Virus record (IMG/VR): IMGVR_UViG_3300033144_005399
Coordinates: 1 to 52,885 of that record
Strand: one strand, 5' to 3'
DNA from: a virus
Length of the DNA stretch: 52,885 nucleotides
This document shows, piece after piece, positions 8,624-37,920 of this stretch. Under the pieces are notes generated by a model, which had not been told where the DNA came from, searched no databases, and saw only the letters and a program-made list of their open reading frames with translations. Within the stretch, counting starts at the first letter, position 1, and the number at the start of each line of letters is the position of its first letter. A program made the translations under genes and the position numbers.

Positions 8624-10795
8624 ATGGGGCTTTACGAGGACATCCGAGGAGCGACAGGCACTGGGCTGACGAGGCTCGGCGACTGGATGGCGGGAAGCGA
8701 CGACGACGTTTCCAAATCGGACATGAACGAGGTGCTCGCGAAGTCGGGCATGGGTCTGCCCGATCCGACTGAAGAGAAGCCCCGCGCTCTATTTCATGAT
8801 CCGTATTCGGTCATGGATTGGGGAGGCTGGCGACAGCGACCGTCGTCGCTGACGTATGAGACGCTGCGGCAGATGACGACGAGCAACACGGTCATCGCCG
8901 CGATCCTCAATCTGCGCATTCACCAAGTCGGTGCGTTCTGCCGACCGCAGCAAGGTAAGTACGACCGCGGATACCGAGTCATCCTCCGCGACCGGCGCGA
9001 CCAGAAGAAGGCGATGACGCCGGGCGAGCAGAAGGAAGCGGACGCCATCGAGCGCATGCTGGAGTCGACGGGCATGATGCTCCCCGACGAGCGCCCGAGC
9101 GACCGCGACAACTTCCGCTCGTTCAGCAAAAAGTCTGTGCGCGATGTGCTCACGTATGACCAGTGGTGCTTCGAGAAGATCCGCGACCGCAAGGGACGCG
9201 TGTCGCGCTTCATCGCGCTGCCTTCCGAGACCATCCGGCCGGCGGTATCCGACATCGAGCACATGGACCCGGCCGAGATCCGCAACCGCGTGTCGCACGT
9301 GCAGGTCTACGAGAACACCGTCATCGCGGAGTTCGCATCCGATGATCTCGCGTGGTGCGTGATGAACCCGCGCAGCGACCTGCGCACGAACGGTTTCGGC
9401 TTCAGCTTCACCGAGCAGATCGTTCGGCTCGTCACGTCGTGGCTGTTCGGCTTCGAATACAACACGAAGTTCTTCACGCAGGGCTCAGCGATCAAAGGAC
9501 TGCTCAACATCAAGGGCGCGATCCCCGATCGTCAAATGCGAGCTTTTCGTCGAATGTGGTACTCGCAACTTGCGAGCATACAGAACGCCTGGAAAACGCC
9601 GATCCTGAACTCCGACGACATCCAGTGGGTATCCATGCACTCGGCAAACCGAGAGATGGAGTACGCCGCCTGGATGGATTGGTTGTGCTTGGGAGGCGAT
9701 TCGGTCATCACTACCGAGAACGGCAACTTGCCCCTGCGCGAGCTGGTCGGCCAAGAGTTCCGAATCTGGGATGGCGACGGATACCACGCAGCGCGCGCGG
9801 TCGAGACGGGCGTGCGCGAGATCGCGATGACGAAGCTGTCCAACGGCTCCGAGCTTCGGTCTTCCCCGGAGCATCTGTTCCGCGTCCGGGTCGAGGGCGT
9901 TGTGGATTGGGTAGCGCAGAAGGATCTCGTACAGGGCGACGAGGTGCTGCTCGACCCGAAGACGGCGACGCCCGACGAGACCGAGTACCCCACGGCTGTC
10001 GTGGTCGAGGCGTGGCAAACGGGGCAGAGCGAGTCGATGTTCGACGTCGAGGTGTTCAACGATCGGCATCTGTTCTTCGCGAACGGAATCGCGGTCCATA
10101 ACACGAAGCTCATCTGCGCCGTGTTCGGCATCGACCCCGTGGAGATCAACTTCATCTTCGGCGGCGGAGGATCGGCCGGCGGCGGAAGCGCGATGTTCGA
10201 TCGCCGACCGAATGCGGCCGAGGTCACCGAGAGCAAGGACAAGGGCCTGCGTCCGCTGCTCACGCACATGGAGGACCACCTCAACCAGCACATCGTCTGG
10301 GATATGAATCCCGACTTCGAGTTCTCGTGGACGGGCTTCGACGCGGCGGCTGAAGCGGTCGAGCGCGAGGCGCGCATGACCGAGGTCACGAGGGTGAAGA
10401 CGGTCAACCAGATCCGCGCGGAGATGGATGAGCCCCCTCTCCCGGGCAAGCTCGGCGACCTGATTCTCGACCCGACCTTCTTCCAGTGGATGATGGCTCA
10501 GGAGGCCGCACAGCAGGAAGGCGGCGAGATGGGCGGCGAGATGGGCGAGGGCGGGCCCCCTGGAGCGCCTGGAGCGCCCCCGGGTGGCGCGGAGCCTCCC
10601 ATGGGCCCGACGCCTGTGGCGGCCGCTGAGGGCGGCGCTGAGGACGACGAAGAGGACTTCCTTCAGGGCATGCACCCCGGTGTCGACGACGACGACGACC
10701 ACGACGACCTGCTCGCAGCGAGCTACACGGTCATCGAGCAGACCGAGGACGTGCTACGGAAGAGCTGGTACGACGGCGATCTGGACGGAGGATAA
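8624..10795 (+). CDS. Portal protein interrupted by a mini-intein
   Basis: The 723-aa precursor gives a mature portal of about 584 aa after removal of a 139-residue intein (residues 355-493). The portal forms the dodecameric DNA entry/exit ring at one capsid vertex. Supporting segments are SYETLRQM-like LTYETLRQMTTSNTVIAAIL near residue 90, the MEYAAWMDWL segment before the intein, and KLICAVFGIDPVEINFIFGG directly after it. These read as one canonical portal block when the intein is removed. The C-terminal 200 residues are Gly/Pro-rich and acidic. L-x-K-S junctions occur near both ends (VLAKSGMG at about residues 36-43; DVLRKSWYDGD at the C-terminus), consistent with maturation trimming, which is inferred. 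Confidence 0.92.
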   Translation: MGLYEDIRGATGTGLTRLGDWMAGSDDDVSKSDMNEVLAKSGMGLPDPTEEKPRALFHDPYSVMDWGGWRQRPSSLTYETLRQMTTSNTVIAAILNLRIHQVGAFCRPQQGKYDRGYRVILRDRRDQKKAMTPGEQKEADAIERMLESTGMMLPDERPSDRDNFRSFSKKSVRDVLTYDQWCFEKIRDRKGRVSRFIALPSETIRPAVSDIEHMDPAEIRNRVSHVQVYENTVIAEFASDDLAWCVMNPRSDLRTNGFGFSFTEQIVRLVTSWLFGFEYNTKFFTQGSAIKGLLNIKGAIPDRQMRAFRRMWYSQLASIQNAWKTPILNSDDIQWVSMHSANREMEYAAWMDWLCLGGDSVITTENGNLPLRELVGQEFRIWDGDGYHAARAVETGVREIAMTKLSNGSELRSSPEHLFRVRVEGVVDWVAQKDLVQGDEVLLDPKTATPDETEYPTAVVVEAWQTGQSESMFDVEVFNDRHLFFANGIAVHNTKLICAVFGIDPVEINFIFGGGGSAGGGSAMFDRRPNAAEVTESKDKGLRPLLTHMEDHLNQHIVWDMNPDFEFSWTGFDAAAEAVEREARMTEVTRVKTVNQIRAEMDEPPLPGKLGDLILDPTFFQWMMAQEAAQQEGGEMGGEMGEGGPPGAPGAPPGGAEPPMGPTPVAAAEGGAEDDEEDFLQGMHPGVDDDDDHDDLLAASYTVIEQTEDVLRKSWYDGDLDGG
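9686..10102 (+). other. Mini-intein within the portal gene
   Basis: These 417 nt encode a Hint/intein domain: N-terminal CLGGDSVITTENGNLPLREL (block A with Cys1), SSPEHLFRVR (block B with its His), VEVFNDRHLFFANG (block F) and IAVHN at the end (block G, His-Asn). The +1 extein residue is Thr. At 139 residues there is no room for a homing endonuclease. All residues needed for protein splicing appear present, so it is probably active, though immobile on its own. Confidence 0.92.
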
Positions 10796-19054: not shown

Positions 19055-19345
19055 ATGTCAGAGATTTGGCAAATCGGACGCGTAGGGCCCAAGGGCAAGC
19101 TGTCGCATGCCTTCAATATCCGCCGCACGGATGACGGCGGGATCAAGCTCTCCAAGGCGCAGGGCCTGACCGAGGCCGAGCGTCATGATCTCTTCGCGCA
19201 CTTCGGCAGGGTGCATCAAGCGCGCACCGGCGGGTACCGCGACGGTGAGCATTGGGAGGGCTGGAAGAAAGTGGAACCCGGAACCGAGCAGCACTTCCTG
19301 AAAGCCGTCTGGAGTCTCCCCGGACTCTTCAAGGTGATGGGCTAA
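19055..19345 (+). CDS. Small unknown protein
   Basis: This 96-aa protein starts 7 nt after the giant protein stop, with GAGGGTGAG just upstream as ribosome binding site. It begins MSEIWQIGRVGPKGKLSHAF and contains LTEAERHDLFAHFGRVH and a Trp-rich end (EHWEGWKKVEPGTEQ). I do not recognise a family. It lies between the two giant proteins and its stop overlaps the next start (TAATG), so it may be a co-produced partner or chaperone of one of them; that is inference. Confidence 0.65.
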   Translation: MSEIWQIGRVGPKGKLSHAFNIRRTDDGGIKLSKAQGLTEAERHDLFAHFGRVHQARTGGYRDGEHWEGWKKVEPGTEQHFLKAVWSLPGLFKVMG

Positions 19346-22300
19346 TGCAGTACGTCATCCCCGCGCGACGCGCCGGTGTCGATGCGCTCGTGAAAGCCGT
19401 CTTCTCGCGAGGCCCGCGGCCCGGCGTGAAGTACATCAAAAAGGTGCCCTACTTCTCAGGTGGGAAGATGAAGTGGCGCTACTACTACCGCGACGAGCAC
19501 TCGCGGAAGCATGGTCGCGGGCACCATGATCCGTACAACGATCACGACCATCACCTCATCGGCGAACTGAAGGATCACCACAAGAACCTCGTCGGCAAGG
19601 TGCGCTCGGCCATCGAGACCGGCATGCAGTTCATCAAGGGACTCTTCGGTTTCAAAAAGCAGCCCGACACAGCGGCCGGTGCGGTGTTCACGCAGAAGTT
19701 CATCGAGCCCCCCATCGCGGCGGAGAAGGAAGGGAAGTCTCCCGACGCGAATGCCGCGACCGTGAAGATGGCGCAGGCGATCGAGATGTTGCCCGATCAT
19801 CTGAAGGCGATGGTCGACCCCGCCCAGATACCGAAGGTCAAGGGTGGGAAGTACAAGGGGCTGAAGAGCTTCTCGCTCCTCGACAACATGGAGGATCCGT
19901 ACCTCCTCCGTCTCGGGCTCCTGGGGATGCTCACGGTCGGCGGTCACGCCAGTCGCACGGAGGGGCATCTCATCGTCAACGGCCTGAGCTTCGAGGGAGG
20001 TAAGAAAGGCGTCACCAGCAAGCCCGATTTCAACTCGCCCGAGACGGTCACCGAGGAGGTGTTCTGGCACGAGTTCGGTCACCACATCCACTACGCCATC
20101 GAGGAGAGCATCACGCGCGGTGAGCTGACGTGGAAGAAGGCATGGGAGGAGTGGGCCGACGGGCTGGACGGGAAGAAGATCAGCGGGTACGCGGGCTCAC
20201 ACACGTATGAGGATTTCGCGGAGTCGTTCGCGTGCATGATCTCGCATCCGAAGCAGCTCGCGATGGTCTGCAAGGAACGGTACGAGTGGATGCAGCAGCA
20301 TCTGTTCGAGCATCTTCCCGAGCAGGAGAAGATGGTTCAGGTCGACGACGAAGAGCTGGCGTGGTGGAACGCCAAGCCGCACACGAAGGTGACTGCGGCG
20401 CTCTTCCAGGCGCGGAAGAAGGAGGGAGCCGCGGCTCCCTTCCACCCGATGCACTCGGAGAAGGATCAGTTCTACACGGTATCCATCGAGGGGCGCACCG
20501 TGTACCTCCGCATGGGCCCGCCGTCGAAGGTCGACGAGGCCGGCTGGCATCGGATGCCCGAGACGACGTACACCGAGACCATCGAGGGTGCGGACGGCAA
20601 GCCCGTGACGATCACGCTGCCGCGCAACGAGAATCTCGTCGGTGCGCGCTTCAAGGCTCAGAGCGCGGCGAAGGAGATCTACGACGAGCGCGGTGTCGCG
20701 CTGACGAATCACCAGGCGTTCCTGCACCTATTCCAAGACGACAAAGACCTCATCGATTGGATGCCCGATGACATCGCGGAGTACGGCAAGTCTCCGCGGT
20801 GGAAGAAGAACAAGGAAGGGAAGGACACGAAGACCCAGGAGAAGGATCCCGAAACGGGAGAGCCGCTCTGGGACTACCGCCCCACCGAGGTGCACAACCT
20901 CAGCCGCCGCATGTTCGAAGCGCTCGGTTTCAAAAAGGCGCACACGAAAGAGAACGAGCGCAAGCGGCTGCTGAAGGTCGTCGTCGCGCAGAAGGAATGG
21001 GACCGCGTAAAGGCGAAGCACGAGGCAGGGAAGAAGCTCACGAAGAAAGAGAAGAGCCTGCTCTTCGAGTACGAGAAGGTCACGTCCGAGAAGACCGGCA
21101 AGGAAACAGTCACGACGCACGTCGTCGCTGAGAAGCCGCGTCCTGACTTCGACGAGTACCAGGGCAAAAAGCTCGGCCGTATCCAGTGGGCTCCGCATGA
21201 GATGACGCGCCACGAGTTCATGCAGAAGAGCGGCACCTTCGCGTTCGGCGAAATGAAGGCGTCGAAGAAGACCGCGCCCTACCTCGCACGCGACGAAGAC
21301 GGCAACGTGGTCATGAAGGCCGACGGCACGCCGCTCACTACCGCGACGGTCTACGAACAGGAGAACCCGGACGGGAGCTGGACGAAGGTCACCGTCAACA
21401 CTTCGGCTCCGTTCAACCGAGGGGATACCATCTACGTGCCCGACAAGTCGGGCAACTGGAAGCGCCACACGCTCGACAGCGGTTCGATCGATCCCTTCAT
21501 CATCGCGCGTGAGCACGGCACGACCATGAAGGCGCTGCTCTCGCACAACGGCAAGTTCGCGCGCGGGCAGATCACCGATCCGATCCTCGCCGCGCTCATC
21601 AACCCAGGCGACATCCCGATCGCCGACTCGACGAAGCTCCAAGAGTTGATGCGCGAAGCCGCGTCGGTGCACAACGTCGACCCGGAGACGCAGGAGCCGT
21701 ACACCGGGCGGCGTGTGTGGGTAACGCTTGCCGGTGAGCCCGGTGGGGGGTCGGCGAAGAGCATGCGCGCGAACGCGCACATCCAGGTGGAGTTCGACGG
21801 CTCGGGCCCCCCGCGGGTGGTGGGGCCGTATTGGGAGCGCAAGCTCGGCAAAGCGCCCGTGCGTGTGGATGAGCTGCTCAACAAGTTCGACGAGATCACC
21901 ACGCCTCTGATCAAAGAGCAGAAGGCAAAGATCGTCCAGGCGAAGCCGGGCGGGCTGGTGTGGTTCGTAGACCCGAAGAGCGAGAAGCGTGTGCTCGGCA
22001 CGTATGTCAAGAAAAGGAAGGACCCGAAGACGAAGAAGGAGCTGTTCATGGTGCAGCCGCTTCCGGGTCAGGCGGCGGGTTCCGCGAAGCACATAGTGGG
22101 CGTGCAAAAGGTCGAACCGGTAACCGATGATCTCGTGCCCGGAAATCCGACGCTGCGGAAGCGGAAGGTGCAGCCGCTGGAGAAGGATCTGCTGCTCTAC
22201 ATGGATGAGGTGCCCCGCGGTTCGGCTACGAACGAGACGCGAGGGAACATCCGAATCCTTCTGCCGACCGACGGCTCCATCACGATGGAACAGGTGAAGA

Positions 22301-25300
22301 AGTATCCGGGCGTGCGGATCCTTGAGCCGACTCCCGGCGACAGAGCTTTGCGCGTCACGATCAGCCCGAAGGATCTTCCTGAGTTCCGCGCACGCGTCGG
22401 CGGATTCATGATGGGCAGTCGCGTGCTCGCGAAGCTCGCGGAAGAGGATACCCGCTCGCGCATCCTCGCGGAGGAGAGCGGCAAGCAACAGATCGTCGAA
22501 CCCGAAGACCTGGAGAACGACGAAGGCAACATCAACCCCGAGGGCCCGCTGCGCGGACTCGTCGAGGGCGACGACGGTATCCAGCCAGGCGAGCACCGCA
22601 TTCGCGCGCTCCAGAAGCTCGCGAAGAACAACGGCCGCCTCTACGCCGCGCACTTCATGGGCACCGGCAAGACCGCGCTCGCGATCATGGCGAGCCAGAT
22701 GATGCGCAACCTCGCGGATCCCAGCGACCCCTCGAAGCCGCATCCGAAGCAGCTCAAAAAGAAGGTGATGCACGTTGTCCCGCTGAACACGGCCGACGGC
22801 TGGTTCCAAGAGTATGTGCGCTTCCTCGGTGCACCGACCGTGGTCGGCGCGGAGTCACTGAGCGGTGCGCAGCAGCTTCCGAAGCTCCCGAAGCGCAATG
22901 CTCGGGAGAAGGATGAGAGCTACCGACAGCGCGTGATGACGTTCTGGAAGAACGCGATCAAGAGCAACCCGAAGCTCTGGAACCCGTGGACCGATGCCGG
23001 CGACAACGTGGTCGCACCGATGGAGTATTTCCGCGACAACGAAGAGGCGCTGCGCCTCACGGGAATGTTCGACGGCATGGTCGTCGATGAGGCGCACAAG
23101 GTCGCGCGCGAAAACCAGCTCTCGAAAGCCATCGAGCGCTGGAACCCGCAGATGAACCTGTTCCTGCTGCTCAGCGGGACGCCCATCACGAACAACCTGA
23201 AGGTGCTGCCTCGCATCGTGGATCTCGTCACGGCCGGTGAGGTGAAGCTCGGGACCGAGGAGGAGTTCACCGAGCGGTATCTCATCGAGAGCGCGACGAT
23301 GCGCGCGTACAACCGGCGCTCCGCCGTGAAAACCGATCTCAACCCGCAACGTGTCGGTGAGCTGGCGGGTATCCTTCAGCCGATCATGGACGTCGCGACG
23401 ACAGCCGACGTCAAGGGCAAGTCCATGCCCGCGGTACTGCTCGATGAGAACGAGCCTGCGCACATGATCGGGCAGCAGGCTCGCATGTACCGGCTCGCGA
23501 TGGCGCAGACCACCGACGCCGAGCGCGAGGCGATGGGAGCCTCGGCTGCGCTCGGACTCGACGAGGGGGGTCTGCTCTCGCCGGACGCGCGCCGCAAGAT
23601 CGCAGTCGCGCGCAGCATCGCGAACGCACCGAGCTACAAGGCCCCCGACGATCGCGAGGACGCGACCTACGAAGAGACCACCGCTCGTGTCGATCGACGC
23701 GGCAACCAGATCGTCGAGAAGACGACGCAGGTATTCGAGCTGCCGTCGCTCGGGAAGATGACGAACAAGCGGACGGATAGGGGCATCGCATGGGGCGGTG
23801 TGTGGCCCGACACCTCGGATGTCGTCGCCGGCCGCATCACGCAGGGTTACTACGAGGCGCTCCATAAGTACGTCCACCGCGTGCTGGGCGTTGGGTACGA
23901 GTTCCTCGAAGGCAAAAAGATCGCGGGCTCCCCGCAGGGGAAGAAGCTCCTCGCCGCGCTGCGCAACAAGGGCGAGTACATCACGAACACCGGAGAGAAG
24001 TGGCAGAAGGGTATCCGCTACTCGGGAGGAGGGAAGCTGAAGAACCCCGACTTCGGACCCGAGGGGATGATCTGCCGCGGCAAGCTCAATGAGCGGACCG
24101 GCGAGATCACGAAGCTCACGGAGATCGGCAAAAAGGCCGCGACCTACTACGACAGTCAGACCGGGCAGTGGAAGCCGGTAGAGGTGAAGCCTGGTCATCT
24201 GTTCGTGCGCGACACGCGCTCGAAGATGCTCGGCGTCTTCTACGATCAGGAGGATTGGGAGTTCACCGGTCGGTTCGACACGAAGGCCGAGAGCGGCACG
24301 ACCGACGACGGTGAAGACGGTCCGAAGATCCCCGACGTCAGCACGCTCACGCGTAAGCAGATGGAGGCGCTCGCGAAGAAGCACGAGATCAGCCTCCCCG
24401 ACGACATAGACGACGAGGTGTTCCGCGCGCTGCTCGAAGACGCGCTTCGGAAGAAGGTGCTCGGGCGCAAGGGCAATCAGCAGGGGCCGAAGGCAGGCCG
24501 CGAAGGGATGACCATCCAGCGTCACCCCGCGCGCCGCGAAGCACGCGCTCAGTTCGACATGGCGGTGACCACGAACAATGCGAAGTGCGACAAGCTCGAA
24601 GAGCACATGCGCGAAGCGCTGAAAGAGAAGACCGGCGGCGGTGCGCAGGATCAGGGGATCATCTTCGGCAACCGCATCGGCAGCGCCGTGCGCACGGCCG
24701 AGTCGAAGCTCCGCATGCTGGGCTACATGGATGTCAACGAGGCTCTCGGGAATCCCGAGTGGTCGACGGATCACGACAAAAAGCGCGCGCTGGGGACCCG
24801 CAAGTTCTACGTCACGTACATGGGCAAGGGTGCGACGCTCGGGGACCGCGACATCAACTCCGAGATCTTCCGCCACGTGCAGGATGACTTCGGTTCGGAT
24901 ACCGGTACGTCGATGTTCGTGCAGCGCTCGATGTACGGCACGTCGAAGAACCGGATGCTGCGCGCCGAGCAGATGGAAGAGCCGTGGGGGAAGTCGCAGC
25001 GGGCGAAGATCAAACAGAACTTCGTCGATGGCACCGGCGCGTCTACGAAGAGCGGAACGCCTCGCGGGCTTGAGGTGCCGATGCGTGTCGTCGGCTGGAA
25101 GAACGACGACGGCAGTGTCGGGCAGCGCTACGTCTATGAGAGTGAGCTGACGACGGCTGCGAAGCGTCAGGTCGCCGCGCTGGAGATCAAAATGCGCTCG
25201 CAGCGCGGCGCGGCGAAGGAGAAGACGAACCGTCAGGTCTACGAGATCATGAAGCCCTTCTTCTCGGAGAAGAGGCCGCTCACCGACGACCAGATCGACA

Positions 25301-26778
25301 TCTACAACAACTGTCAGATCATGGTCGCGTCGGACGCAGCGAACGTCGGCATGAACTGGCCGGTGAAGCATCTGTGGATGTACGACTCGCTGTTCAGCCC
25401 GATGGAGGAGTGGCAGCGCATCACGCGCGCGGCGCGCATGCTCCCGCCCGCAGTCCGCGGTCCCGCGAAGAAGCTCATCGAGAAGATCGGCGCGTACATC
25501 TCGAAGATCGAAGCGCAGAACGACTTCAAGGAATACGAGGGCGTCGACAGCGCGATGCTCATCGTGCGCGAAGCGATCGAGAAAGCGCTCACGCCAGCGG
25601 AGCGTGCGGAGCTGAACGACCTGCCTGGGGGTGCGCCCGATCAGATTCTGGAAGCGTGGTTCGCGAAGCGAGCGTTCGACAAGATCGCAAGTGCTCGCGA
25701 GGAGGTGGGCGCTCAGCTCCGACAGACCGGGGACATCCCCGACCCGACGCGCCCGCTAGAGAGCCTCATCCCGCCCGAGGCGATCACCGAAGCCGACATC
25801 ATGAATCACATCCTTCGCAACCACATGACGGGCTTCGATCTGGAGATCCTGAAGAGCCGCCGCTACCTCGTGGATGTGAAGCGCCTCACGGTATCCGTCG
25901 ATGTGCCCGAGTTCGTCGACATCACGGTCACCGATCCGATGACGGGTAAGCGGGGCAAGGTGCGGATCCCGACCGGGGAGATGCTCACCGAATCGCCCGC
26001 GCTCGCGGAGAAGAGCCAGCTCGCGCAGGGGCGCGCGAAGATGGTGCCTTACGAATACTTCCTGAAGGTCGTGCAGAACGAGCAGCCGAAGCACACGAAG
26101 TACGACTACACGCCCGCATGGCGCGGATCGCTCGCGGCGTTCTCGCTGCTCGAAGATGGGCAGGGCAACCCCGTGGGCGCCGCTCCCATGCTCGTCGAGA
26201 TCCAGAACGCTGACGGCTCGCGCAGCTTCGTCACGCAGGCGGAGTTCGAGGCGGCGGGCGGGAAGCTGAAGGAGCCACCCATCAAGGCCAAGACCGCGAA
26301 GCGCGAGGAGGGTCCGAAGAAGCAGGGCCCATCAACACCGATGGCGGCGGTCAAGGCGAAGCTCGGCGGAGACACCTTCGGTTGGAAGGGGGGCAGCGGG
26401 AAGATCTTCATCTCGACCCCGAAGGATGCGGGGCTCCCGTATCTGGCGGTCGACCCCTCGCACCGGCGCGAGGCACCCGCGGGGAGCGCTGACTACGCGG
26501 AGTGGAGTGCGACCTACGAGGTTCCGCTATACCGTGCGGTCGAAGACCGGCTGAAGAGTCTCGGGCTCGGGCATCTTTCCATCGAGATCGATGCGGGGGG
26601 CTACGTGCAGCTACACCCCGGCGCGTCGGGCGAGTACGGCACGACGCCACCTTCCGCGGCCGGCGCGGGCAAACCGAAGAAGGGCCGCAAAGCGCCGCCC
26701 GGGTTCGACCCCGAGGGCATGCAGCCCGAAGACCTGCGGAAGAAGTCGATGCGGTTCGTTGTGCCGCGGGGGAGATAA
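19345..26778 (+). CDS. Giant polyvalent protein: HEFGH metallopeptidase fused to SNF2-type helicase
   Basis: The ATG at 19345 overlaps the upstream stop and yields 2477 aa. An N-terminal LVKA junction is followed by KYIKKVPYFSGGKMKWRYYY, a motif also seen in other large phage proteins. A zincin domain has HEFGH (residues 242-246), and TYEDFAESFA probably supplies the third zinc ligand. Residues about 690-766 contain a DTIYVPDKSGNWKRHTL..IAREHGTTMKALL stretch that looks LysM-like. The helicase has Walker A MGTGKTALA (GTGKT 1106-1110), DEAH at 1248-1251, LLLSGTPIT (SGTP 1277-1280), a C-terminal half with MVASDAANVGMNW (about 1993), and motif VI QRITRAAR (about 2024). This is the SNF2/superfamily 2 arrangement. 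Comparable proteins such as P1 DarB are packaged and protect or remodel incoming DNA. A long insertion separates the helicase halves. Role in the cell is inferred. Confidence 0.88.
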   Translation: MQYVIPARRAGVDALVKAVFSRGPRPGVKYIKKVPYFSGGKMKWRYYYRDEHSRKHGRGHHDPYNDHDHHLIGELKDHHKNLVGKVRSAIETGMQFIKGLFGFKKQPDTAAGAVFTQKFIEPPIAAEKEGKSPDANAATVKMAQAIEMLPDHLKAMVDPAQIPKVKGGKYKGLKSFSLLDNMEDPYLLRLGLLGMLTVGGHASRTEGHLIVNGLSFEGGKKGVTSKPDFNSPETVTEEVFWHEFGHHIHYAIEESITRGELTWKKAWEEWADGLDGKKISGYAGSHTYEDFAESFACMISHPKQLAMVCKERYEWMQQHLFEHLPEQEKMVQVDDEELAWWNAKPHTKVTAALFQARKKEGAAAPFHPMHSEKDQFYTVSIEGRTVYLRMGPPSKVDEAGWHRMPETTYTETIEGADGKPVTITLPRNENLVGARFKAQSAAKEIYDERGVALTNHQAFLHLFQDDKDLIDWMPDDIAEYGKSPRWKKNKEGKDTKTQEKDPETGEPLWDYRPTEVHNLSRRMFEALGFKKAHTKENERKRLLKVVVAQKEWDRVKAKHEAGKKLTKKEKSLLFEYEKVTSEKTGKETVTTHVVAEKPRPDFDEYQGKKLGRIQWAPHEMTRHEFMQKSGTFAFGEMKASKKTAPYLARDEDGNVVMKADGTPLTTATVYEQENPDGSWTKVTVNTSAPFNRGDTIYVPDKSGNWKRHTLDSGSIDPFIIAREHGTTMKALLSHNGKFARGQITDPILAALINPGDIPIADSTKLQELMREAASVHNVDPETQEPYTGRRVWVTLAGEPGGGSAKSMRANAHIQVEFDGSGPPRVVGPYWERKLGKAPVRVDELLNKFDEITTPLIKEQKAKIVQAKPGGLVWFVDPKSEKRVLGTYVKKRKDPKTKKELFMVQPLPGQAAGSAKHIVGVQKVEPVTDDLVPGNPTLRKRKVQPLEKDLLLYMDEVPRGSATNETRGNIRILLPTDGSITMEQVKKYPGVRILEPTPGDRALRVTISPKDLPEFRARVGGFMMGSRVLAKLAEEDTRSRILAEESGKQQIVEPEDLENDEGNINPEGPLRGLVEGDDGIQPGEHRIRALQKLAKNNGRLYAAHFMGTGKTALAIMASQMMRNLADPSDPSKPHPKQLKKKVMHVVPLNTADGWFQEYVRFLGAPTVVGAESLSGAQQLPKLPKRNAREKDESYRQRVMTFWKNAIKSNPKLWNPWTDAGDNVVAPMEYFRDNEEALRLTGMFDGMVVDEAHKVARENQLSKAIERWNPQMNLFLLLSGTPITNNLKVLPRIVDLVTAGEVKLGTEEEFTERYLIESATMRAYNRRSAVKTDLNPQRVGELAGILQPIMDVATTADVKGKSMPAVLLDENEPAHMIGQQARMYRLAMAQTTDAEREAMGASAALGLDEGGLLSPDARRKIAVARSIANAPSYKAPDDREDATYEETTARVDRRGNQIVEKTTQVFELPSLGKMTNKRTDRGIAWGGVWPDTSDVVAGRITQGYYEALHKYVHRVLGVGYEFLEGKKIAGSPQGKKLLAALRNKGEYITNTGEKWQKGIRYSGGGKLKNPDFGPEGMICRGKLNERTGEITKLTEIGKKAATYYDSQTGQWKPVEVKPGHLFVRDTRSKMLGVFYDQEDWEFTGRFDTKAESGTTDDGEDGPKIPDVSTLTRKQMEALAKKHEISLPDDIDDEVFRALLEDALRKKVLGRKGNQQGPKAGREGMTIQRHPARREARAQFDMAVTTNNAKCDKLEEHMREALKEKTGGGAQDQGIIFGNRIGSAVRTAESKLRMLGYMDVNEALGNPEWSTDHDKKRALGTRKFYVTYMGKGATLGDRDINSEIFRHVQDDFGSDTGTSMFVQRSMYGTSKNRMLRAEQMEEPWGKSQRAKIKQNFVDGTGASTKSGTPRGLEVPMRVVGWKNDDGSVGQRYVYESELTTAAKRQVAALEIKMRSQRGAAKEKTNRQVYEIMKPFFSEKRPLTDDQIDIYNNCQIMVASDAANVGMNWPVKHLWMYDSLFSPMEEWQRITRAARMLPPAVRGPAKKLIEKIGAYISKIEAQNDFKEYEGVDSAMLIVREAIEKALTPAERAELNDLPGGAPDQILEAWFAKRAFDKIASAREEVGAQLRQTGDIPDPTRPLESLIPPEAITEADIMNHILRNHMTGFDLEILKSRRYLVDVKRLTVSVDVPEFVDITVTDPMTGKRGKVRIPTGEMLTESPALAEKSQLAQGRAKMVPYEYFLKVVQNEQPKHTKYDYTPAWRGSLAAFSLLEDGQGNPVGAAPMLVEIQNADGSRSFVTQAEFEAAGGKLKEPPIKAKTAKREEGPKKQGPSTPMAAVKAKLGGDTFGWKGGSGKIFISTPKDAGLPYLAVDPSHRREAPAGSADYAEWSATYEVPLYRAVEDRLKSLGLGHLSIEIDAGGYVQLHPGASGEYGTTPPSAAGAGKPKKGRKAPPGFDPEGMQPEDLRKKSMRFVVPRGR

Positions 26779-29087: not shown

Positions 29088-30506
29088 ATGCTCGGAGCTT
29101 TCGTAAGCGCTCAGGACTACCGTGACTACAGCGGGTACGGGACGGTGCAGTCGCCTGGGGAGATCGCAGATCTCCGCAAGGCGCTTAGCGCCGGACAGGA
29201 CGTCAACGATCCGGGTGTCGCACCCGGCGTCGGCTTCCCGCTGCGCACGGAGTCGCTCGAAGCGACCCTGAAAAATCTCACCTACGAGATGGACGAGATC
29301 AAGCTTTTCAAATCCATCCCCAAGGTACCAGCGACAAATACAGTTGAGGAGTTCAATCGCTTGCTGAGTTATGGCTCGGCGGGCGCGCGGCAGTTCAACC
29401 GCGGCTTCTTCGACGAAGGTGACCTTCCTGAGGAGGAAGATAGCACCTACGAAAGAGTGACGATCCTGATTCGATTTATCGGGATCACCGGCAGAGTGAC
29501 GCACGTCGCCAACACTATCCGCGCTGCACATGGAAATGTAGTTGCGCTCGAAACGATGAACAAAACGATGGAGCTGTTGCGCAACTTGGAGAACTCGTTG
29601 TTCTTCGGCGACAACACTCTTATCCCGCAACAGTGGGATGGTCTCGAACGTCTCATCACCGACGGCGCTCCCGACAACGTGATCGACCTTCGCGGCGCAC
29701 CGCTCACCGAAGAAGCGATGAACGACTTCCTGTTGCAGATTCGCGACAACTTCGGCATGGCGACCGACTGCTACTTCGGCACCGGTCCGTTCGCTGATCT
29801 CGCGAAGCAGGTCTACGACAGACAGAGGTTCGCGTATGCGCCCGCACCCGGTGTGCTCGGCGCAACCGTGACGGCCTTCCAAGGTCAGCACGGCAAGGTG
29901 AACTTGCATGACCACGTGTTCATCACGGACGGCGACACCGCTGTCGCCGCGGGTATCGGCCGCACCGACCGTCGTCCGCTCGCACCGACGAACCCCGTCG
30001 CAACCGCAGCCGCACCCGCCGTGGGTTCGGAGTTCCTCGCGGCCGACATCGGCACGTACATCTACCGTGTCGTCGCCGGCAACAGGTTCGGCCTGAGCGC
30101 TCCGATCGACACGGCGGGTGTCATCGTCGCCGCCGGTGACGGCGTGACGTTCACCGTCGCCGACGGTGGGCAGGACACGACGTTCTACGAAATCTATCGG
30201 ACTGCGATCGGCGCAGCGGTCGGTACCGCACGGTTGATGACGCGTGTCGCGCGCACGGGCGCAACGCAGGTCATCACCGACCTGAACGCCGACATCCCCG
30301 GCACGAGCAAGGGCTTCGTGCTCATGCAGAACCAGCGGTCGTTTGCATGGAGCCAGCTCTTGCCAATGACCCGCATCCCACTTGCGGCCATCGACACTTC
30401 CATACGCTGGGCTCAGGTGCTGTACGGCGCAATGAAGCTTTACACGCCTGCAAAGAACATTGTCGTCAAAAACATCGGTCGAGCAGCCGGCTCGCTCGGT
30501 AGCTGA
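29088..30506 (+). CDS. Major capsid protein
   Basis: This 472-aa protein follows the protease and scaffold-like genes, with GGAAGGAA as ribosome binding site. The segment LRTESLEATLKNLTYEMDE followed by IPKVPATNTVEEFNRL is the conserved start of the shell domain in a broad family of HK97-fold capsids. Residues 29-36 (LRKALSAG) mirror the LVKSLSAG of the protease, so cleavage after K31 would remove a short N-terminal peptide; HK97 capsid is likewise cut after a Lys before Ser-Leu. A beta-rich insertion at about residues 300-410 (TYIYRVVAGNRFGLSAPIDT) looks like an Fn3/Ig-type surface domain. Codon use here is slightly less GC-biased than in neighbours, and no exact GTATCC core occurs in the gene. 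Confidence 0.88.
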   Translation: MLGAFVSAQDYRDYSGYGTVQSPGEIADLRKALSAGQDVNDPGVAPGVGFPLRTESLEATLKNLTYEMDEIKLFKSIPKVPATNTVEEFNRLLSYGSAGARQFNRGFFDEGDLPEEEDSTYERVTILIRFIGITGRVTHVANTIRAAHGNVVALETMNKTMELLRNLENSLFFGDNTLIPQQWDGLERLITDGAPDNVIDLRGAPLTEEAMNDFLLQIRDNFGMATDCYFGTGPFADLAKQVYDRQRFAYAPAPGVLGATVTAFQGQHGKVNLHDHVFITDGDTAVAAGIGRTDRRPLAPTNPVATAAAPAVGSEFLAADIGTYIYRVVAGNRFGLSAPIDTAGVIVAAGDGVTFTVADGGQDTTFYEIYRTAIGAAVGTARLMTRVARTGATQVITDLNADIPGTSKGFVLMQNQRSFAWSQLLPMTRIPLAAIDTSIRWAQVLYGAMKLYTPAKNIVVKNIGRAAGSLGS

Positions 30507-32786: not shown

Positions 32787-33692
32787 ATGTTTCCAGAGGC
32801 AGGTTGGAAACACACACGACAGGTGGGCGGGGTCGCGAATAACGAGACTCCCGATTTCCACGGGCGCACGCCCGCGAACATTATCAGCGGAGCGAAGGCC
32901 AACTACACCGCGGGGAACATCGCCACGGTCTCGGTGCAAGACGGCAACTGGGTCAACAATCTCAACTCGATCACGCTCGCCACGACGCGACGGCAGAACG
33001 CCATGTTCCGGTTCGACATCACGGCGCCCGGCACGCTGATCACGATGAGCAACTTCGTCGACTTCTCTCACGTCGTCGAAGGCACGCAGCGGAACCACAC
33101 GATCAAAACCTACGTGTGGAACGTCAACACGCTTGCTTGGGTGGAGCTTGCGTCGCACGGCGGGTTCGGCACGCCGCGCTCGATGAGCGGTCCGGTCACT
33201 GCGCCGTTCACCGATTACGTGGACGGAACAAACAAGTGCTACATCCTGATCTGGGATTACGAGGGCACGTACAATAGCGGTGGGACCGGGTGCGTTCGCG
33301 AGGGCTCGACGATCCAGACGCCGAGCGGGCCCGTGCTGGTCTCCAAGCTCAACCCCGGCGACCGGATACTGTCATGGGAGATGGGTAATCTCATCGAGGC
33401 GCTCGTGCATGAGGTCACGCATCACTACGAGGAGCTTTGGAGAATGTTCACCCTCACGACGTCGGCCGGAGTCGCGGTGGTGACGCACAATCACATCATC
33501 GAAACGGAGGCGGGCGACAAGGCCGCGGAGGATCTGACGCTAGACGACAGGATGCTGAGCTTGGCTGGTGTGTGGACGCCCATCGTTTCCATCGAAAGCG
33601 TCGAGGAGTCGTGCCACGTGTACGACGTCCAAGGACGTTGCCCCAACTTTTTTGTCGGCGACGGCATCGGCGTGAACGTGATGCAGACATGA
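32787..33692 (+). CDS. Virion protein with C-terminal Hint (intein-like) domain
   Basis: This 301-aa protein has two parts. Residues 1-168 are beta-rich (DFHGRTPANIISGAKANY; FDITAPGTLITMSNFVD; TYVWNVNTLAWVELASH), resembling a virion beta sandwich that ends in YNSGGTG. At C169 a Hint domain begins: GCVREGSTIQTPSGPVLV, LNPGDRILSW, block B AGVAVVTHNHIIE, and block F-like VYDVQGRCPNFFVGDGIGV. The protein then ends NVMQT instead of the His-Asn plus nucleophile needed for splicing. So N-terminal thioester chemistry may remain while C-terminal cleavage is lost, as in Hedgehog-like or bacterial intein-like domains. Likely products are cleavage of the N-part or its transfer to another nucleophile. The next gene overlaps by four bases. 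Confidence 0.8.
   Translation: MFPEAGWKHTRQVGGVANNETPDFHGRTPANIISGAKANYTAGNIATVSVQDGNWVNNLNSITLATTRRQNAMFRFDITAPGTLITMSNFVDFSHVVEGTQRNHTIKTYVWNVNTLAWVELASHGGFGTPRSMSGPVTAPFTDYVDGTNKCYILIWDYEGTYNSGGTGCVREGSTIQTPSGPVLVSKLNPGDRILSWEMGNLIEALVHEVTHHYEELWRMFTLTTSAGVAVVTHNHIIETEAGDKAAEDLTLDDRMLSLAGVWTPIVSIESVEESCHVYDVQGRCPNFFVGDGIGVNVMQT
33291..33689 (+). other. Hint domain lacking terminal His-Asn
   Basis: Codons 169-301 of the gene at 32787. The nucleophile Cys169 and block B (T-H-x-H context, VVTHNH) are present; the C-terminal splice block is not. It is distinct in sequence from the portal intein, so it is not a recent copy of it. Confidence 0.8.
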
Positions 33693-34453
33693 GCTTGTGG
33701 GGTAAGTCGCTGCTCGACGCGTGGCGTCTCTTCGGGGACGGCAAGCTGGGCCAAGAGATCACGGCGAAGAATCTCTACCGCTGGACCACGAAGATCGGCG
33801 ACGTGGTGGTGGATGACGGCGAGTACACGTTTTTCGAGTACCTCTTTCCGCGGGCTCTCGTCGGCATGTGGGGTCTGTTTGATTTGGTGATCGCGTTGGC
33901 GATTCTGGACTGCGAGCTGTCCGTGGACCGGCAGCGCACGTGGGACATGCTGCACGTGGGCGCAGGGTCGGGCCGCCTCACGAGCGCCGTCTCCTCATGG
34001 AAGGCGCCGCTCCGGTGCTACTCCATCGACAACGACCCCAGCGCGATCACGCTCATGGAGGCGCGCGACGTTCCGTGCGAGTGGATGGACGCGCACGACA
34101 TGAGCGCGTTCGCCGACGACAGCTTTCCCCTCGTCGTGATCTCATTCTGGATGATCAGTCAGAGCACGGACATCGAGACCCTGATCGCGGAATGTGCGCG
34201 CGTCGCGTCCGAGAAGGTGATCGTGGCCGGTTGGTTCGCCAAGGGGCTCGGGCACGAGAGGCCCGTCAAGGTGGTCGAAACGATGACCGACTGGCAGGGC
34301 AACACGGAGGACTACTCGACTACGGCGTGGCATCGAGATCACGTACTCAGGCTGTTCGCGGCAGAGTCGATGAAGCCTACGGTAACGCGGACTTTTCTGA
34401 CGTTGGATGCTAAGCCCGACGAAATCTCATGGCTCGTAGAGGTAGGGTTCTAG
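33689..34453 (+). CDS. SAM-dependent methyltransferase-like protein
   Basis: Starting at ATG 33689, which overlaps the previous stop (ATGA), the product is 254 aa. It shows a class I Rossmann methyltransferase pattern: motif I MLHVGAGSGRLT (V90-G95), an acidic end to the second strand in CYSIDNDPSAI, and a motif IV-like SFPLVVISFWMIS. The N-terminal 85 residues are hydrophobic and may form a membrane or packing segment (FPRALVGMWGLFDLVIALAIL). Substrate cannot be told; no NPPY/DPPY motif of adenine N6 methylases is seen. Lying immediately after the Hint-domain gene and within head genes, it may modify virion protein or be cargo. A structural protein that borrowed the fold is also possible. 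Confidence 0.65.
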   Translation: MSLWGKSLLDAWRLFGDGKLGQEITAKNLYRWTTKIGDVVVDDGEYTFFEYLFPRALVGMWGLFDLVIALAILDCELSVDRQRTWDMLHVGAGSGRLTSAVSSWKAPLRCYSIDNDPSAITLMEARDVPCEWMDAHDMSAFADDSFPLVVISFWMISQSTDIETLIAECARVASEKVIVAGWFAKGLGHERPVKVVETMTDWQGNTEDYSTTAWHRDHVLRLFAAESMKPTVTRTFLTLDAKPDEISWLVEVGF

Positions 34454-34454
34454 T

Positions 34455-36236
34455 GTGTCGGTCGGAAGTAACTCCAATCTTCGGATCTGGTACGAGACGC
34501 TCACGCTCATGTTCCCATCGCTCGTGTCGGCGGGCGCGCTGCTACGGAAGAGGGAGACGGATACCGTGCTAGTTGCTGGAGCTGTGCGAGACCTGATCGC
34601 CGTGGTGCACGCCACCGACGGCAGCCAGTTCACCGCTGCGACGTTCGGCGTGGTGCGCCTGGAGCAGCCGGGTGACGCAGCCGACGGTTGGTATTGGAAC
34701 GAGACTACGGTGGCGTGGGCGGCAGCGCTGACGGTCAATCAAGTCGCCACGCACTTGGAGGCGGGGCAACATCTCTACCTTCTTCCCGCCGCCGCGACGA
34801 CCGGCCGGGCTGGCGCGATCATTCATTTCACGTTCACCGACCACATGACCGAGGCGACGGCGACGACTGTCTGCACGGGCGGCGAGCATCTCGTCGTGAC
34901 CGACCCGCTCGACGGTCCGGTCGCGCACGACGCGCAGCTCATCACCACGCACGGCGCGGGGAGCTGGCAACAGGTGATCGCGACGGGGCAACTGAACGAG
35001 GTGCCCAACGCGAGCAGCGTGGTCACGACGGGAACGGTCGCGTCCGGCACCTACGCCAGCACGGCTTTGCTCGACGGTGTGTACTGGCAGATCCAAGACG
35101 ACACCGGTGAGATCGAAATGTATTTCGAGTTCCTCATCGCGGCCGATGGCGTCCCGGTGTCGGTGTCGCACGAGGGGCGGCTCTCTGGTGCGGGCGATGA
35201 CCTCGATGTGTTCGCCTACAACTGGCTCGGCACCGCGTGGGAACAGATCGGAACCTTGCTGGGCAAGAACTCGCCCGCCGATGAGGTGACCTCGTTTGCG
35301 CTGTTCTCTCAGCACGTCGGGGCCGGGGCGAACCTCGGCAAGGTCCGCGTTCGCTTCTACACCGCGGCCGGTCTGACCACGGCGAACTTCTATTCCGATC
35401 AGGTGATCCTGAGCTACGCCGTGATCAACCGCAGCGTGGGTTACGCCGATGGTGCCATCTGGGTCGACACCGCGAACGGCGCTGCGGGCTCGACCCCGTT
35501 CATCAACGGCGTCGCCGACAACCCGGTGCTCACTTGGGCCGACGCTCTGCTGCTCTCGGCAGCTCTCGGCATTCGACGCTTCAGAGTCGCGGGCGGGAGC
35601 ACGATCACGCTCACCGCGAACAGCGACGCTTTCCAGATCATCGGCGCGGAGTACACCTTGAATCTGGGCGGGCAGTCGATCGCCGCTGCCTTCATTCAGG
35701 GAGCGACTGTCGCGGGCATAAGCGCGGGGCTCGACGCGCGGTTCATCGGATGCCGGATCGGCACGACCAGCCTGACGCAGTGCGGGATGGGTGGCTGCGC
35801 GATCACCGATGTAATCACGCTTCTGTCGGCGGGGCCGTACATCCTCGACGCCTGTTTCAGTGCGGTCGCTGGGGTCGGGTCTCCCGTGGTCGACTTCGGC
35901 GCGGCGGTCGGCGACACGCAGCTCAACGTGCGACACTGGTCGGGAGGCATCGAAGTGCGGAACATGAACGCGGCCGGTACCGATACGATGAGCTTGGAAG
36001 GGGAGGGGCAGCTCATCCTCGCCGCGAGCTGCGTCGGCGGAACGATCGCGGTGCGAGGGGAGTTCACTCTTACCGACAACGCGGGCGGAGCGGTGGCGCT
36101 CTCCGACGACGCGCGGCTGACGCGCTCGGAGCTGGCCGACGCGATTTGGGATGAGCCGCACGCGGGGCACTTCGCGGCCGGGACGTTCGGATCGCTCGTG
36201 CGCTTGATTCGCGCGTGGCTGGGGCTCTCAGGGTGA
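34455..36236 (+). CDS. Large beta-rich structural protein (head fibre or collar-like)
   Basis: This 593-aa protein starts at GTG 34455 right after the previous stop. Several beta-rich sections are visible: an N-terminal FPSLVSAGALLRKRETDTVLV region, a central sandwich (DGVYWQIQDDTGEIEMYFEF; VRVRFYTAAGLTTANFYSDQ), and a stretch with regularly spaced strands resembling a beta helix (STITLTANSDAFQIIGAEYT; ARFIGCRIGTTSLTQCGMGG). The C-terminus has ELADAIWDEPHAGHFAAGTF, a motif common at the end of metagenomic phage structural proteins. LLRKR occurs near residue 30. A trimeric fibre or collar role is inferred. Confidence 0.6.
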   Translation: MSVGSNSNLRIWYETLTLMFPSLVSAGALLRKRETDTVLVAGAVRDLIAVVHATDGSQFTAATFGVVRLEQPGDAADGWYWNETTVAWAAALTVNQVATHLEAGQHLYLLPAAATTGRAGAIIHFTFTDHMTEATATTVCTGGEHLVVTDPLDGPVAHDAQLITTHGAGSWQQVIATGQLNEVPNASSVVTTGTVASGTYASTALLDGVYWQIQDDTGEIEMYFEFLIAADGVPVSVSHEGRLSGAGDDLDVFAYNWLGTAWEQIGTLLGKNSPADEVTSFALFSQHVGAGANLGKVRVRFYTAAGLTTANFYSDQVILSYAVINRSVGYADGAIWVDTANGAAGSTPFINGVADNPVLTWADALLLSAALGIRRFRVAGGSTITLTANSDAFQIIGAEYTLNLGGQSIAAAFIQGATVAGISAGLDARFIGCRIGTTSLTQCGMGGCAITDVITLLSAGPYILDACFSAVAGVGSPVVDFGAAVGDTQLNVRHWSGGIEVRNMNAAGTDTMSLEGEGQLILAASCVGGTIAVRGEFTLTDNAGGAVALSDDARLTRSELADAIWDEPHAGHFAAGTFGSLVRLIRAWLGLSG

Positions 36237-36820
36237 CGGCGAGCGGAGGCAGTGACTTGGGTGACAACGGAACAGGGCAGCATCGTCTCCCCGGTTACGT
36301 GGACGACGAGCAGAGGAGCAAGCCGATGAGGAAACAGCGCGACTCTGATCCGGTGCCCGCGCATCTGAAGAAGACGAAGGCGGTCGTCGACTTCCTAAAG
36401 TACGTGATCGCGCTCGTCATCGGGATCGCTGCGCTCGGGTGGATGGGGCACGAGTACATCGGGCAGTTCCAGACCACGGAAGAGGCGGAGGCGGCAGCGA
36501 CGGCTGTGGCAATCGAGCGCGCTTCATCGCACGAGCATGTGCAGATCGCGATCGACGAGAACGGTGACGCGATCAGGAACGTGCGCATCCACGGCGTGCG
36601 CATCGAGCTAGAGCAGCGGAGCACGAACGATCGCCTCGACCAGCTCCTCGCGCTCCAGAGGGCGGATACCCGTGCGGAGCGCCGCGATGCAGAGCGCCGT
36701 GTCGATGAGCTTCAGCGCCGCATCGAGCGCCGCGAGCGCGTCATCCGAAACCCGGTCGCCTTGCAGCGGGTGGCGGATCAGGTCGAGGATGATCCACTAT
36801 CAGGGCTGGACGGACTATGA
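36233..36820 (+). CDS. Single-pass membrane protein with coiled coil
   Basis: GTG 36233 overlaps the previous stop (GTGA) and gives 195 aa; ATG 36327 is an alternative. One clear transmembrane helix (VVDFLKYVIALVIGIAALGW) is followed by a long charged helical region (RLDQLLALQRADTRAERRDA and on) with strong coiled-coil character. Topology with a short N-terminal arm and a long coiled tail recalls phage holin-like or spanin-like proteins, but no lysis genes are nearby. Its position between a fibre-like gene and neck genes gives no decisive clue. Function unknown. Confidence 0.6.
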   Translation: MTASGGSDLGDNGTGQHRLPGYVDDEQRSKPMRKQRDSDPVPAHLKKTKAVVDFLKYVIALVIGIAALGWMGHEYIGQFQTTEEAEAAATAVAIERASSHEHVQIAIDENGDAIRNVRIHGVRIELEQRSTNDRLDQLLALQRADTRAERRDAERRVDELQRRIERRERVIRNPVALQRVADQVEDDPLSGLDGL

Positions 36821-37920
36821 CTGCGAACACGATCCCCATCACGACCGTCGAGAATGCGAACGCACCGGCGATCAGCGCGGGTGCGCTCGGCACGTGCATC
36901 ACGGTATCCGTCAATGACGACAACGTGGCCGAGGTCATCGATTGCGGCTTCGATCGGCTCATCCTCGAACGCTCTCAGAACGGGGGCCTGAGCTGGGCCG
37001 AGATCACGCTGCCGAGCGAGCGCGGCGTGCTGGAAGCTGCCACGACGGAGTACAAGCTCGTCGACCGCAGAGGCGACGCCGCGTACTCGTACCGCACGCG
37101 GTACATGGCGAGCGCGGGCGCACTGAAGGGTGAGTGCAGCGACCCGAGCGAAGCCATCGCGGGCGAGGGGCTCGCGCTGCGTTCGCTGCTCACCGTGCCC
37201 GAGCTGAAGAACCGCTACTTCTTCGGCGTCGACATCACTGACGACGCAGGCAACCCGCTCACGAACGCGACGTTCCGGCACTACATCCTCACGGCGATCC
37301 GGTGGCTGGAGCACCAGCTCGACATTCCGATCCTGCCGACCTCGTTCTGCGAGTTTCACGACTACTACCGAAACGACTACGACGCATTCCAGTTCATCCA
37401 GCTCGACAACTACCCGCTGATCTCCGTGGAGGAGTTCCGCGTGCAGTATCCGTCGGGGCAGAATGTGATCGTGTTCCCGCAGGAATGGCTGCGCTTGAAC
37501 CTGCCCGAAGGGCACGTGCAGATCGTTCCGACAGCGGGCACGCTGAGCGAGATACTCGTCGGGCAAGGCGGCTCGTTCTTGCCCGCGATTTACAACGGCC
37601 TGTCGTACCTCCCGCAGCTCTTCCAGCTTCAGTACACGGCGGGCTTCGAAGACGGCAAGGTGCCGAGGAACATCATCGACGTGATCGGGAAGTTCGCGTC
37701 GCTCGGACCGTTCGACATCTTCGGCGACCTCATCGTCGGCGCGGGCATCGCGACGCTCTCGCTGTCGATGGACGGGCTCTCGCAAACCATCGGCTCAACT
37801 TCGTCGGCTACGAACGCCGGCTACGGGGCACGCGTAATCCAATACACTCGGTATATAAAGGATCAAATCCCGTTGCTCCGCCGCTACTACAAGCGACCCG
37901 GAAGGATGGTCGTGGCGTAG
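36817..37920 (+). CDS. Head-tail connector protein with N-terminal Fn3-like domain
   Basis: This 367-aa protein overlaps the previous gene by four bases. Residues 30-115 read as a fibronectin III-like fold (FDRLILERSQNGGLSWAEIT; YKLVDRRGDAAYSYRTRYMA). From residue about 130 a connector-type segment follows: LTVPELKNRYFFGVDITDDA, YILTAIRWLEHQLDIPILP, then FQFIQLDNYPLISVEEFRV and LPQLFQLQYTAGFEDGKVP. This pattern matches phage head-tail adaptor proteins that dock under the portal. GEGLALRS at about residue 119 faintly echoes the capsid/protease block. Role as neck protein is supported by gene order. Confidence 0.7.
   Translation: MTANTIPITTVENANAPAISAGALGTCITVSVNDDNVAEVIDCGFDRLILERSQNGGLSWAEITLPSERGVLEAATTEYKLVDRRGDAAYSYRTRYMASAGALKGECSDPSEAIAGEGLALRSLLTVPELKNRYFFGVDITDDAGNPLTNATFRHYILTAIRWLEHQLDIPILPTSFCEFHDYYRNDYDAFQFIQLDNYPLISVEEFRVQYPSGQNVIVFPQEWLRLNLPEGHVQIVPTAGTLSEILVGQGGSFLPAIYNGLSYLPQLFQLQYTAGFEDGKVPRNIIDVIGKFASLGPFDIFGDLIVGAGIATLSLSMDGLSQTIGSTSSATNAGYGARVIQYTRYIKDQIPLLRRYYKRPGRMVVA

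What the first reader, a model, noticed from the sequence alone, without database searches (positions are those of the whole stretch)
33291..33689. A virion protein ending in a Hint domain without the C-terminal splice block
Cys169 and the THNH block remain, but the chain ends GIGVNVMQT, so ordinary splicing is impossible. Hedgehog-like or bacterial intein-like chemistry could cleave the beta-rich N-part or attach it covalently to another molecule, such as a capsid subunit, lipid or amine. Two different Hint domains in one structural module is striking.
Basis: partly seen in the sequence, partly recalled or inferred. Interest (0 to 1): 0.75.

Follow-up and report, generated by a model that had tools for sequence, protein, structure and literature searches.

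The report
Phage protein with N-cleavage-only Hint tail
A gene in an uncultivated phage makes a short beta-rich protein ending in a self-cutting (intein-type) domain whose front-end chemistry looks intact while every residue of the back-end, splicing chemistry is gone; it probably cuts itself off the front part, an unusual but not unprecedented use of the domain.

Summary
Gene 32787-33692 (301 aa) ends in a complete Hint fold: 46 bits versus at most 12 for 1,000 shuffles, and a model matching inteins, BIL domains and Hedgehog. Cys169, preceded by Gly, and T233-H-N-H236 are present. Block F His is Pro286, the terminal His-Asn is replaced by N-V-MQT, and no C-extein or +1 nucleophile follows. 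No reading frame hides an HN end, and the stop overlaps the next start (ATGA). Splicing is therefore excluded, while N-side chemistry (N-S shift, cleavage after Gly168) is possible.

I could not confirm that it is a virion protein. The N-part has no relatives, and the gene lies in a variable stretch between capsid and neck genes that in relatives holds structural and non-structural genes. No relative has this gene. The second Hint, in the portal, is an ordinary mini-intein from an unrelated lineage.

Best reading: a BIL-like, N-cleavage-only Hint derived from an intein (0.5). Main rival: a decaying intein that lost its C-extein (0.3). Covalent attachment of the N-part to another molecule has no support here; a Hedgehog-type lipid adduct is unlikely because nothing follows the Hint. 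It counts as a new member of a known kind.

The parts
32787..33692 (+). 301-aa gene: beta-rich N-part plus C-terminal Hint domain
   Evidence: ORF; codon-position GC like neighbouring phage genes, third position 0.82-0.83
32787..33290 (+). N-part, residues 1-168, ending S-G-G-T-G before Cys169; predicted mostly beta at low confidence; no relatives found
   Evidence: weak resemblance to a beta domain in the 34455-36236 product (8 of 500 shuffles score as high)
33291..33689 (+). Hint domain, residues 169-301, complete fold
33291..33293 (+). Cys169 (block A nucleophile), preceded by Gly168
   Evidence: invariant column in alignments A3 and A4
33483..33494 (+). block B T233-H-N-H236 (TxxH)
   Evidence: H236 invariant in A3
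33639..33689 (+). degenerate blocks F and G: C285-P286-N-F-F-V-G-D-G-I-G-V-N297-V298-M-Q-T; block F His is Pro, terminal His-Asn absent
   Evidence: alignment with true mini-inteins
33689..34453 (+). next gene, class I SAM methyltransferase (Methyltransf_11 3.6e-8); start overlaps the stop of the Hint gene (ATGA 33689-33692)
34455..36236 (+). 593-aa beta-rich protein, no clear relatives, same variable stretch
36817..37920 (+). conserved neck gene (phrog_772, about 40% identical to SPO1 gp6.3) bounding the variable stretch; carries an intein in some relatives
9686..10102 (+). second Hint: 139-aa mini-intein in the portal gene (C...VHN|T), full splice block
   Evidence: relative L006 has an uninterrupted portal

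Best explanation
The gene encodes a fusion of a small beta-rich phage protein (residues 1-168) with a C-terminal Hint domain of intein origin that has kept only the first half of the splicing chemistry. Cys169 would attack the Gly168-Cys169 bond, helped by T233/H236, giving a thioester of the N-part. With no block F His, no His-Asn and no +1 nucleophile, the thioester can only be broken by water or an outside nucleophile. The N-part ending ...SGGTG would be released from the 133-residue Hint tail, as in B-type bacterial intein-like (BIL) domains. Shown: the fold, the intact N-side residues, the missing C-side residues, the intact reading frame and the variable-locus setting. Inferred: the cleavage itself, that it is useful to the phage (for example timed release or exposure of a new C-terminus), and that the N-part is structural.
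For: Full Hint fold in the model: pLDDT about 65-89 over residues 171-300; TM 0.88-0.89 to gp41-1 intein, 0.80 to BIL 2lwy, 0.74-0.78 to Tetrahymena BIL2. All three N-side catalytic positions kept (C169, T233, H236) with Gly at -1, and all four C-side positions lost (block F His, penultimate His, Asn, +1 nucleophile), 3/3 versus 0/4. The frame is open with codon-position composition like its neighbours and tightly coupled to the next gene. The gene lies in a variable stretch, as reviews describe for BIL domains; the same review says B-type BILs keep all motifs but the C-terminal one and cleave at the N-side (PMC7765530). A second viral protein with Cys1 and TxxH and no HN block at its C-terminus exists in L103.
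Against: No relative of the protein was found in IMG/VR, GTDB genomes, phage or plasmid records, so nothing shows that the N-side residues are kept by selection. The C-side losses could stem from a single event. The N-part may lack its last strand, which would fit a truncated host domain.
Confidence: 0.5

Rival explanations
1. A decaying intein. A mini-intein sat near the C-end of a beta-sandwich protein; its C-extein and splice block were lost, perhaps when the methyltransferase gene arrived, and what remains has no selected function, whether or not it cleaves.
For: The phage group carries many inteins and also splicing-dead Hint remnants. The methyltransferase gene is absent from the relatives examined. 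The N-part's weak match to the domain in the 34455 product stops before the last strand. The gene is a singleton.
Against: No frameshift, stop or codon drift. Damage is confined to the C-side; all N-side catalytic residues and the whole fold remain.
Confidence: 0.3
2. A transferase: the thioester is resolved by an amine of a partner protein, so the N-part is attached covalently, as reported for the BIL2 domain of the Tetrahymena BUBL1 locus.
For: BIL2 structures are the top fold matches. BIL2 makes lysine isopeptide bonds (PMC8616854). The N-part ends in a small flexible SGGTG.
Against: The fold ranking does not discriminate between Hint kinds. BIL2 retains its C-terminal block (crystallised as N143A). 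No partner, no lysine motif and no adduct data here.
Confidence: 0.1
3. Hedgehog-like transfer to a lipid or other small alcohol.
For: Same Hint fold (TM 0.76 to 1at0) and Gly-Cys junction.
Against: Hedgehog proteins couple this to a sterol-recognition region after the Hint (PMC7906309 abstract); here the chain ends four residues after the last predicted Hint strand.
Confidence: 0.03
4. Sequencing or assembly error hiding a normal intein end and C-extein.
For: Single metagenomic contig.
Against: No HN[CSTA] in any of the three frames from 33291 to about 34500. Block F and G residues differ by substitution within an intact frame. The next gene starts exactly at the stop.
Confidence: 0.04

Closest known systems
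B-type bacterial intein-like (BIL) domains (Amitai 2003, Dassa 2004, as reviewed in PMC7765530)
   Same: Intein motifs kept except the C-terminal one; expected N-side cleavage; found in variable, non-conserved contexts
   Different: Here it is the very C-terminus of a phage protein; no BIL profile was available to test sequence membership
Class 1 mini-inteins of phages (this window's portal intein, Cane17 portal intein, gp41-1)
   Same: Same fold, Cys1, block B TxxH, similar length (133 aa)
   Different: No block F His, no HN, no +1 nucleophile, no C-extein; at most 29% identical
BIL2 of the Tetrahymena BUBL1 locus (6y75, 6tmm)
   Same: Top fold match; Hint next to a small domain
   Different: BIL2 has its C-terminal splice residues and a ubiquitin-like neighbour, and acts by isopeptide formation
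Hedgehog Hog domain (1at0)
   Same: C-terminal Hint using only the N-S shift, Gly-Cys junction
   Different: No sterol-recognition region here
Pfam Hint_2 (PF13403)
   Same: Best Pfam match, in the first 29 residues
   Different: Below the curated cut-off and covers positions 2-30 of 147 only
L103 protein (IMGVR_UViG_3300037522_000189)
   Same: Viral protein ending in a Hint with Cys1 and TKDH but no HN block
   Different: Different N-part, 20% identical in the Hint; also a singleton

Membership tests
Class 1 intein | Cys/Ser at position 1 | tested here: met
   C169
Class 1 intein | block B TxxH | tested here: met
   T233-H-N-H236
Class 1 intein | block F His and terminal His-Asn | tested here: not met
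   P286; chain ends GVNVMQT
Class 1 intein | C-extein starting with Cys/Ser/Thr | tested here: not met
   stop codon at once; no HN[CSTA] in any frame downstream
Class 3 intein | no Cys1; Cys in block F of the WCT motif | tested here: not met
   Cys1 present; the D of VYDV sits where gp41-1 D107C was engineered (position inferred alignment and entry 6riz)
A-type BIL | conserved C-terminal His-Asn | tested here: not met
B-type BIL | intein motifs present except the C-terminal motif | tested here: met
   blocks A, B and the F strand present, His-Asn absent; the block F His is also lost
B-type BIL | variable, non-conserved context | tested here: met
   variable stretch of 0.7-4.3 kb between conserved genes in relatives
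B-type BIL | N-side autocleavage | not testable with these tools
   needs protein expression
B-type BIL | sequence kinship to known B-type BILs | not tested
   no BIL model in the libraries used
Hedgehog Hog | Hint fold | tested here: met
   TM 0.76 to 1at0
Hedgehog Hog | sterol/adduct-recognition region after the Hint | tested here: not met
   chain ends four residues after the last strand
Pfam Hint_2 PF13403 | score above curated cut-off | tested here: not met
   26.2 versus 28.4 bits
Virion structural protein | homology of the N-part to a structural family | tested here: inconclusive
   no relatives; only a marginal resemblance to a neighbour

The most novel reading that the evidence does not exclude
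The Hint tail is an active conjugation device: it activates the N-part as a thioester and hands it to an amine of another phage or host protein, giving ATP-free covalent decoration of the virion or of a host target.
Probability: 0.07. Interest if true: 0.8.

Novelty: new member of a known kind. Interest (0 to 1): 0.4.

Why it matters
If the N-side cleavage is active, it would be a clear case of a phage recruiting an intein as a maturation or release switch rather than carrying it as a parasite, and an easily expressed 301-aa test protein for N-cleavage-only Hint chemistry. If it is a relic, it shows how inteins end: they lose the C-side first while the N-side remains. It would not by itself change views of the Hint superfamily, because N-cleaving Hints without a C-terminal block are already known.

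Tried and rejected
Homologue searches for the full protein, the Hint and the N-part failed in viral contigs, GTDB genomes, phages (9, 18, 19: only true inteins at about 30%) and plasmids. A motif scan for the FF[VA]GDG end gave only chance matches in unrelated frames. A scan with the neighbouring methyltransferase found nothing. A scan with the L103 Hint found only itself. The structure of the N-part is unreliable, alone (mean pLDDT 38) or in the full model. Frameshift: rejected. Split or trans-splicing intein: rejected, as blocks A to F are all in one chain. Pretoxin-type Hint with a toxin after it: rejected, as nothing follows the Hint. A survey of 119 viral loci with a Hint block A motif gave mostly inteins, partial N-halves or contig-edge cuts; among Hints whose chain ends soon after without HN I saw L103 and a Hint_2-like one in L134.

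Full report
What is there. The window is a virus record. From portal (8624-10795, phrog portal), major capsid protein (29088-30506, phrog_752), a neck protein related to SPO1 gp6.3 (36817-37920) and neighbouring genes, I infer a relative of SPO1-like myoviruses. The gene in question, 32787-33692, encodes 301 aa. Residues 169-301 are a Hint domain. A profile made only from true mini-inteins gives it 46 bits, against at most 12.4 bits for 1,000 shuffles. An AlphaFold2 model made with an alignment of eight Hints has pLDDT of about 65-89 over the Hint part, and Foldseek finds inteins, BILs and Hedgehog at TM 0.74-0.89 normalised to the target.

Active-site inventory. Block A Cys169 follows Gly168 (...SGGTG|CVREG). 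Block B is THNH (233-236), the TxxH motif. The block F strand (HVYDVQ...NFF) is present, but the position of its catalytic His is Pro286 (CPNFF versus HHTFI or RHLFF in true inteins). Block G, normally VHN, reads VNV followed by MQT and stop. N-side catalytic residues are 3 of 3 present; C-side residues, counting the missing +1 nucleophile, 0 of 4. No HN[CSTA] exists in any frame up to about 34500, and the stop overlaps the next gene's start as ATGA, so a hidden frameshifted end is not credible. Codon-position GC of the N-part and Hint matches the neighbouring genes.

Context. Seventeen loci related by capsid protein and more related by the neck gene show that the stretch between the capsid/decoration-like genes and the neck gene is variable, about 0.7 to 4.3 kb. 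In relatives it holds fibre-like or LamG-like proteins, glycine-rich proteins, coiled-coil proteins and, in L006, a PAS-domain histidine kinase with two response-regulator proteins (names from my reading of the sequences). So position alone does not prove a virion protein. None of the relatives has this Hint gene or its N-part, nor is the methyltransferase next to it found in them. The N-part has no relatives anywhere I could search. A marginal resemblance to a beta domain of the nearby 34455-36236 product (8 of 500 shuffles as good) hints at the same beta-sandwich type and at a missing last strand, but is too weak to build on.

The other Hint. The portal gene carries a 139-aa mini-intein with C1, an SPEH block B, HN and Thr+1; the spliced portal aligns without interruption to L006. 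It is a sister (54-61% identity) of inteins inserted in the neck gene of L181, L185 and L186 (SATN|C...HN|SGYGAR), and only 20% identical to the finding's Hint. So the two Hints in the window have separate origins, in a group of phages that gathers inteins. Several of these relatives also have a free-standing ORF of about 435 aa with a Hint-like start and end, no Cys1 and no HN: splicing-dead Hints do occur in this group.

Mechanism. From established Hint chemistry, Cys1 plus the block B residues suffice for the N-S acyl shift; branch resolution and C-cleavage need Asn and the block F and penultimate His. The retained half predicts a thioester at Gly168 that hydrolyses or meets another nucleophile, separating the N-part from the Hint tail. 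This is what reviews say of B-type BIL domains (PMC7765530). Amine transfer is known for the BIL2 domain of Tetrahymena (PMC8616854), but that Hint has its C-side residues, and nothing here points to a partner. Lipid transfer as in Hedgehog needs a recognition region, absent here.

Function or decay? For function: damage is strictly one-sided, fold and frame are intact, and L103 shows the same half-preserved arrangement independently. For decay: no relatives, so no test of selection; loss of the C-side could be one event linked to the arrival of the methyltransferase gene; inteins are abundant in the group. I put 0.5 on an active N-cleaving Hint that serves the phage, 0.3 on a relic, 0.1 on a transferase and the rest on others.

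Novelty. Viral proteins named Hint-domain proteins of about 230-420 aa are common in the BFVD structure library, and N-cleaving Hints without a C-block are a known kind. This is a new member, in an unusual place, with a clean active-site split that makes it a convenient test protein.

Noticed in passing
window 9686-10102: Portal gene carries a full mini-intein without endonuclease; L006 has the uninterrupted portal.
   Followed up: yes
L181:7051-8586, L185:2917-4452, L186:7953-9488: Neck gene (phrog_772 homologue) interrupted by a mini-intein, sister of the window's portal intein.
   Followed up: yes
L177:9356-10711, L178, L179:8347-9651, L180, L181:8811-10121, L186:9481-10788: Free-standing ORF of about 435 aa just after the neck gene: Hint-like start and end without Cys1 or HN, with a LAGLIDADG-endonuclease-like middle by eye (no Pfam hit). 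Possibly a splicing-dead intein acting as a trans homing endonuclease for the endonuclease-free mini-inteins nearby.
   Followed up: partly
L103 (IMGVR_UViG_3300037522_000189), frame on the minus strand: 526-aa phage protein ending in a Hint with Cys1 and TKDH but no HN block; a second example of a terminal half-preserved Hint.
   Followed up: partly
L200 (record of L184): RecA-like protein with an intein that starts with Ala (GK|ALSLDTP...THN|S).
   Followed up: no
window 7259-7318, 13300-13359, 14047-14106, 15001-15060, 15883-15942, 16708-16767, and one in ORF 106-1761: Motif GP(F/Y)(I/V)GP(R/K)GG(K/L)WAD.(K/R)(H/R)T(I/V).W repeated at least seven times in three proteins, five of them at intervals along one 1,991-aa ORF, as if marking the start of successive modules.
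   Followed up: partly
L006:13339-15712: PAS-type histidine kinase and two response-regulator proteins in the variable stretch between capsid and neck genes.
   Followed up: no
window 19252-26778: 2,508-aa ORF with helicase-like segments upstream of the capsid genes.
   Followed up: no
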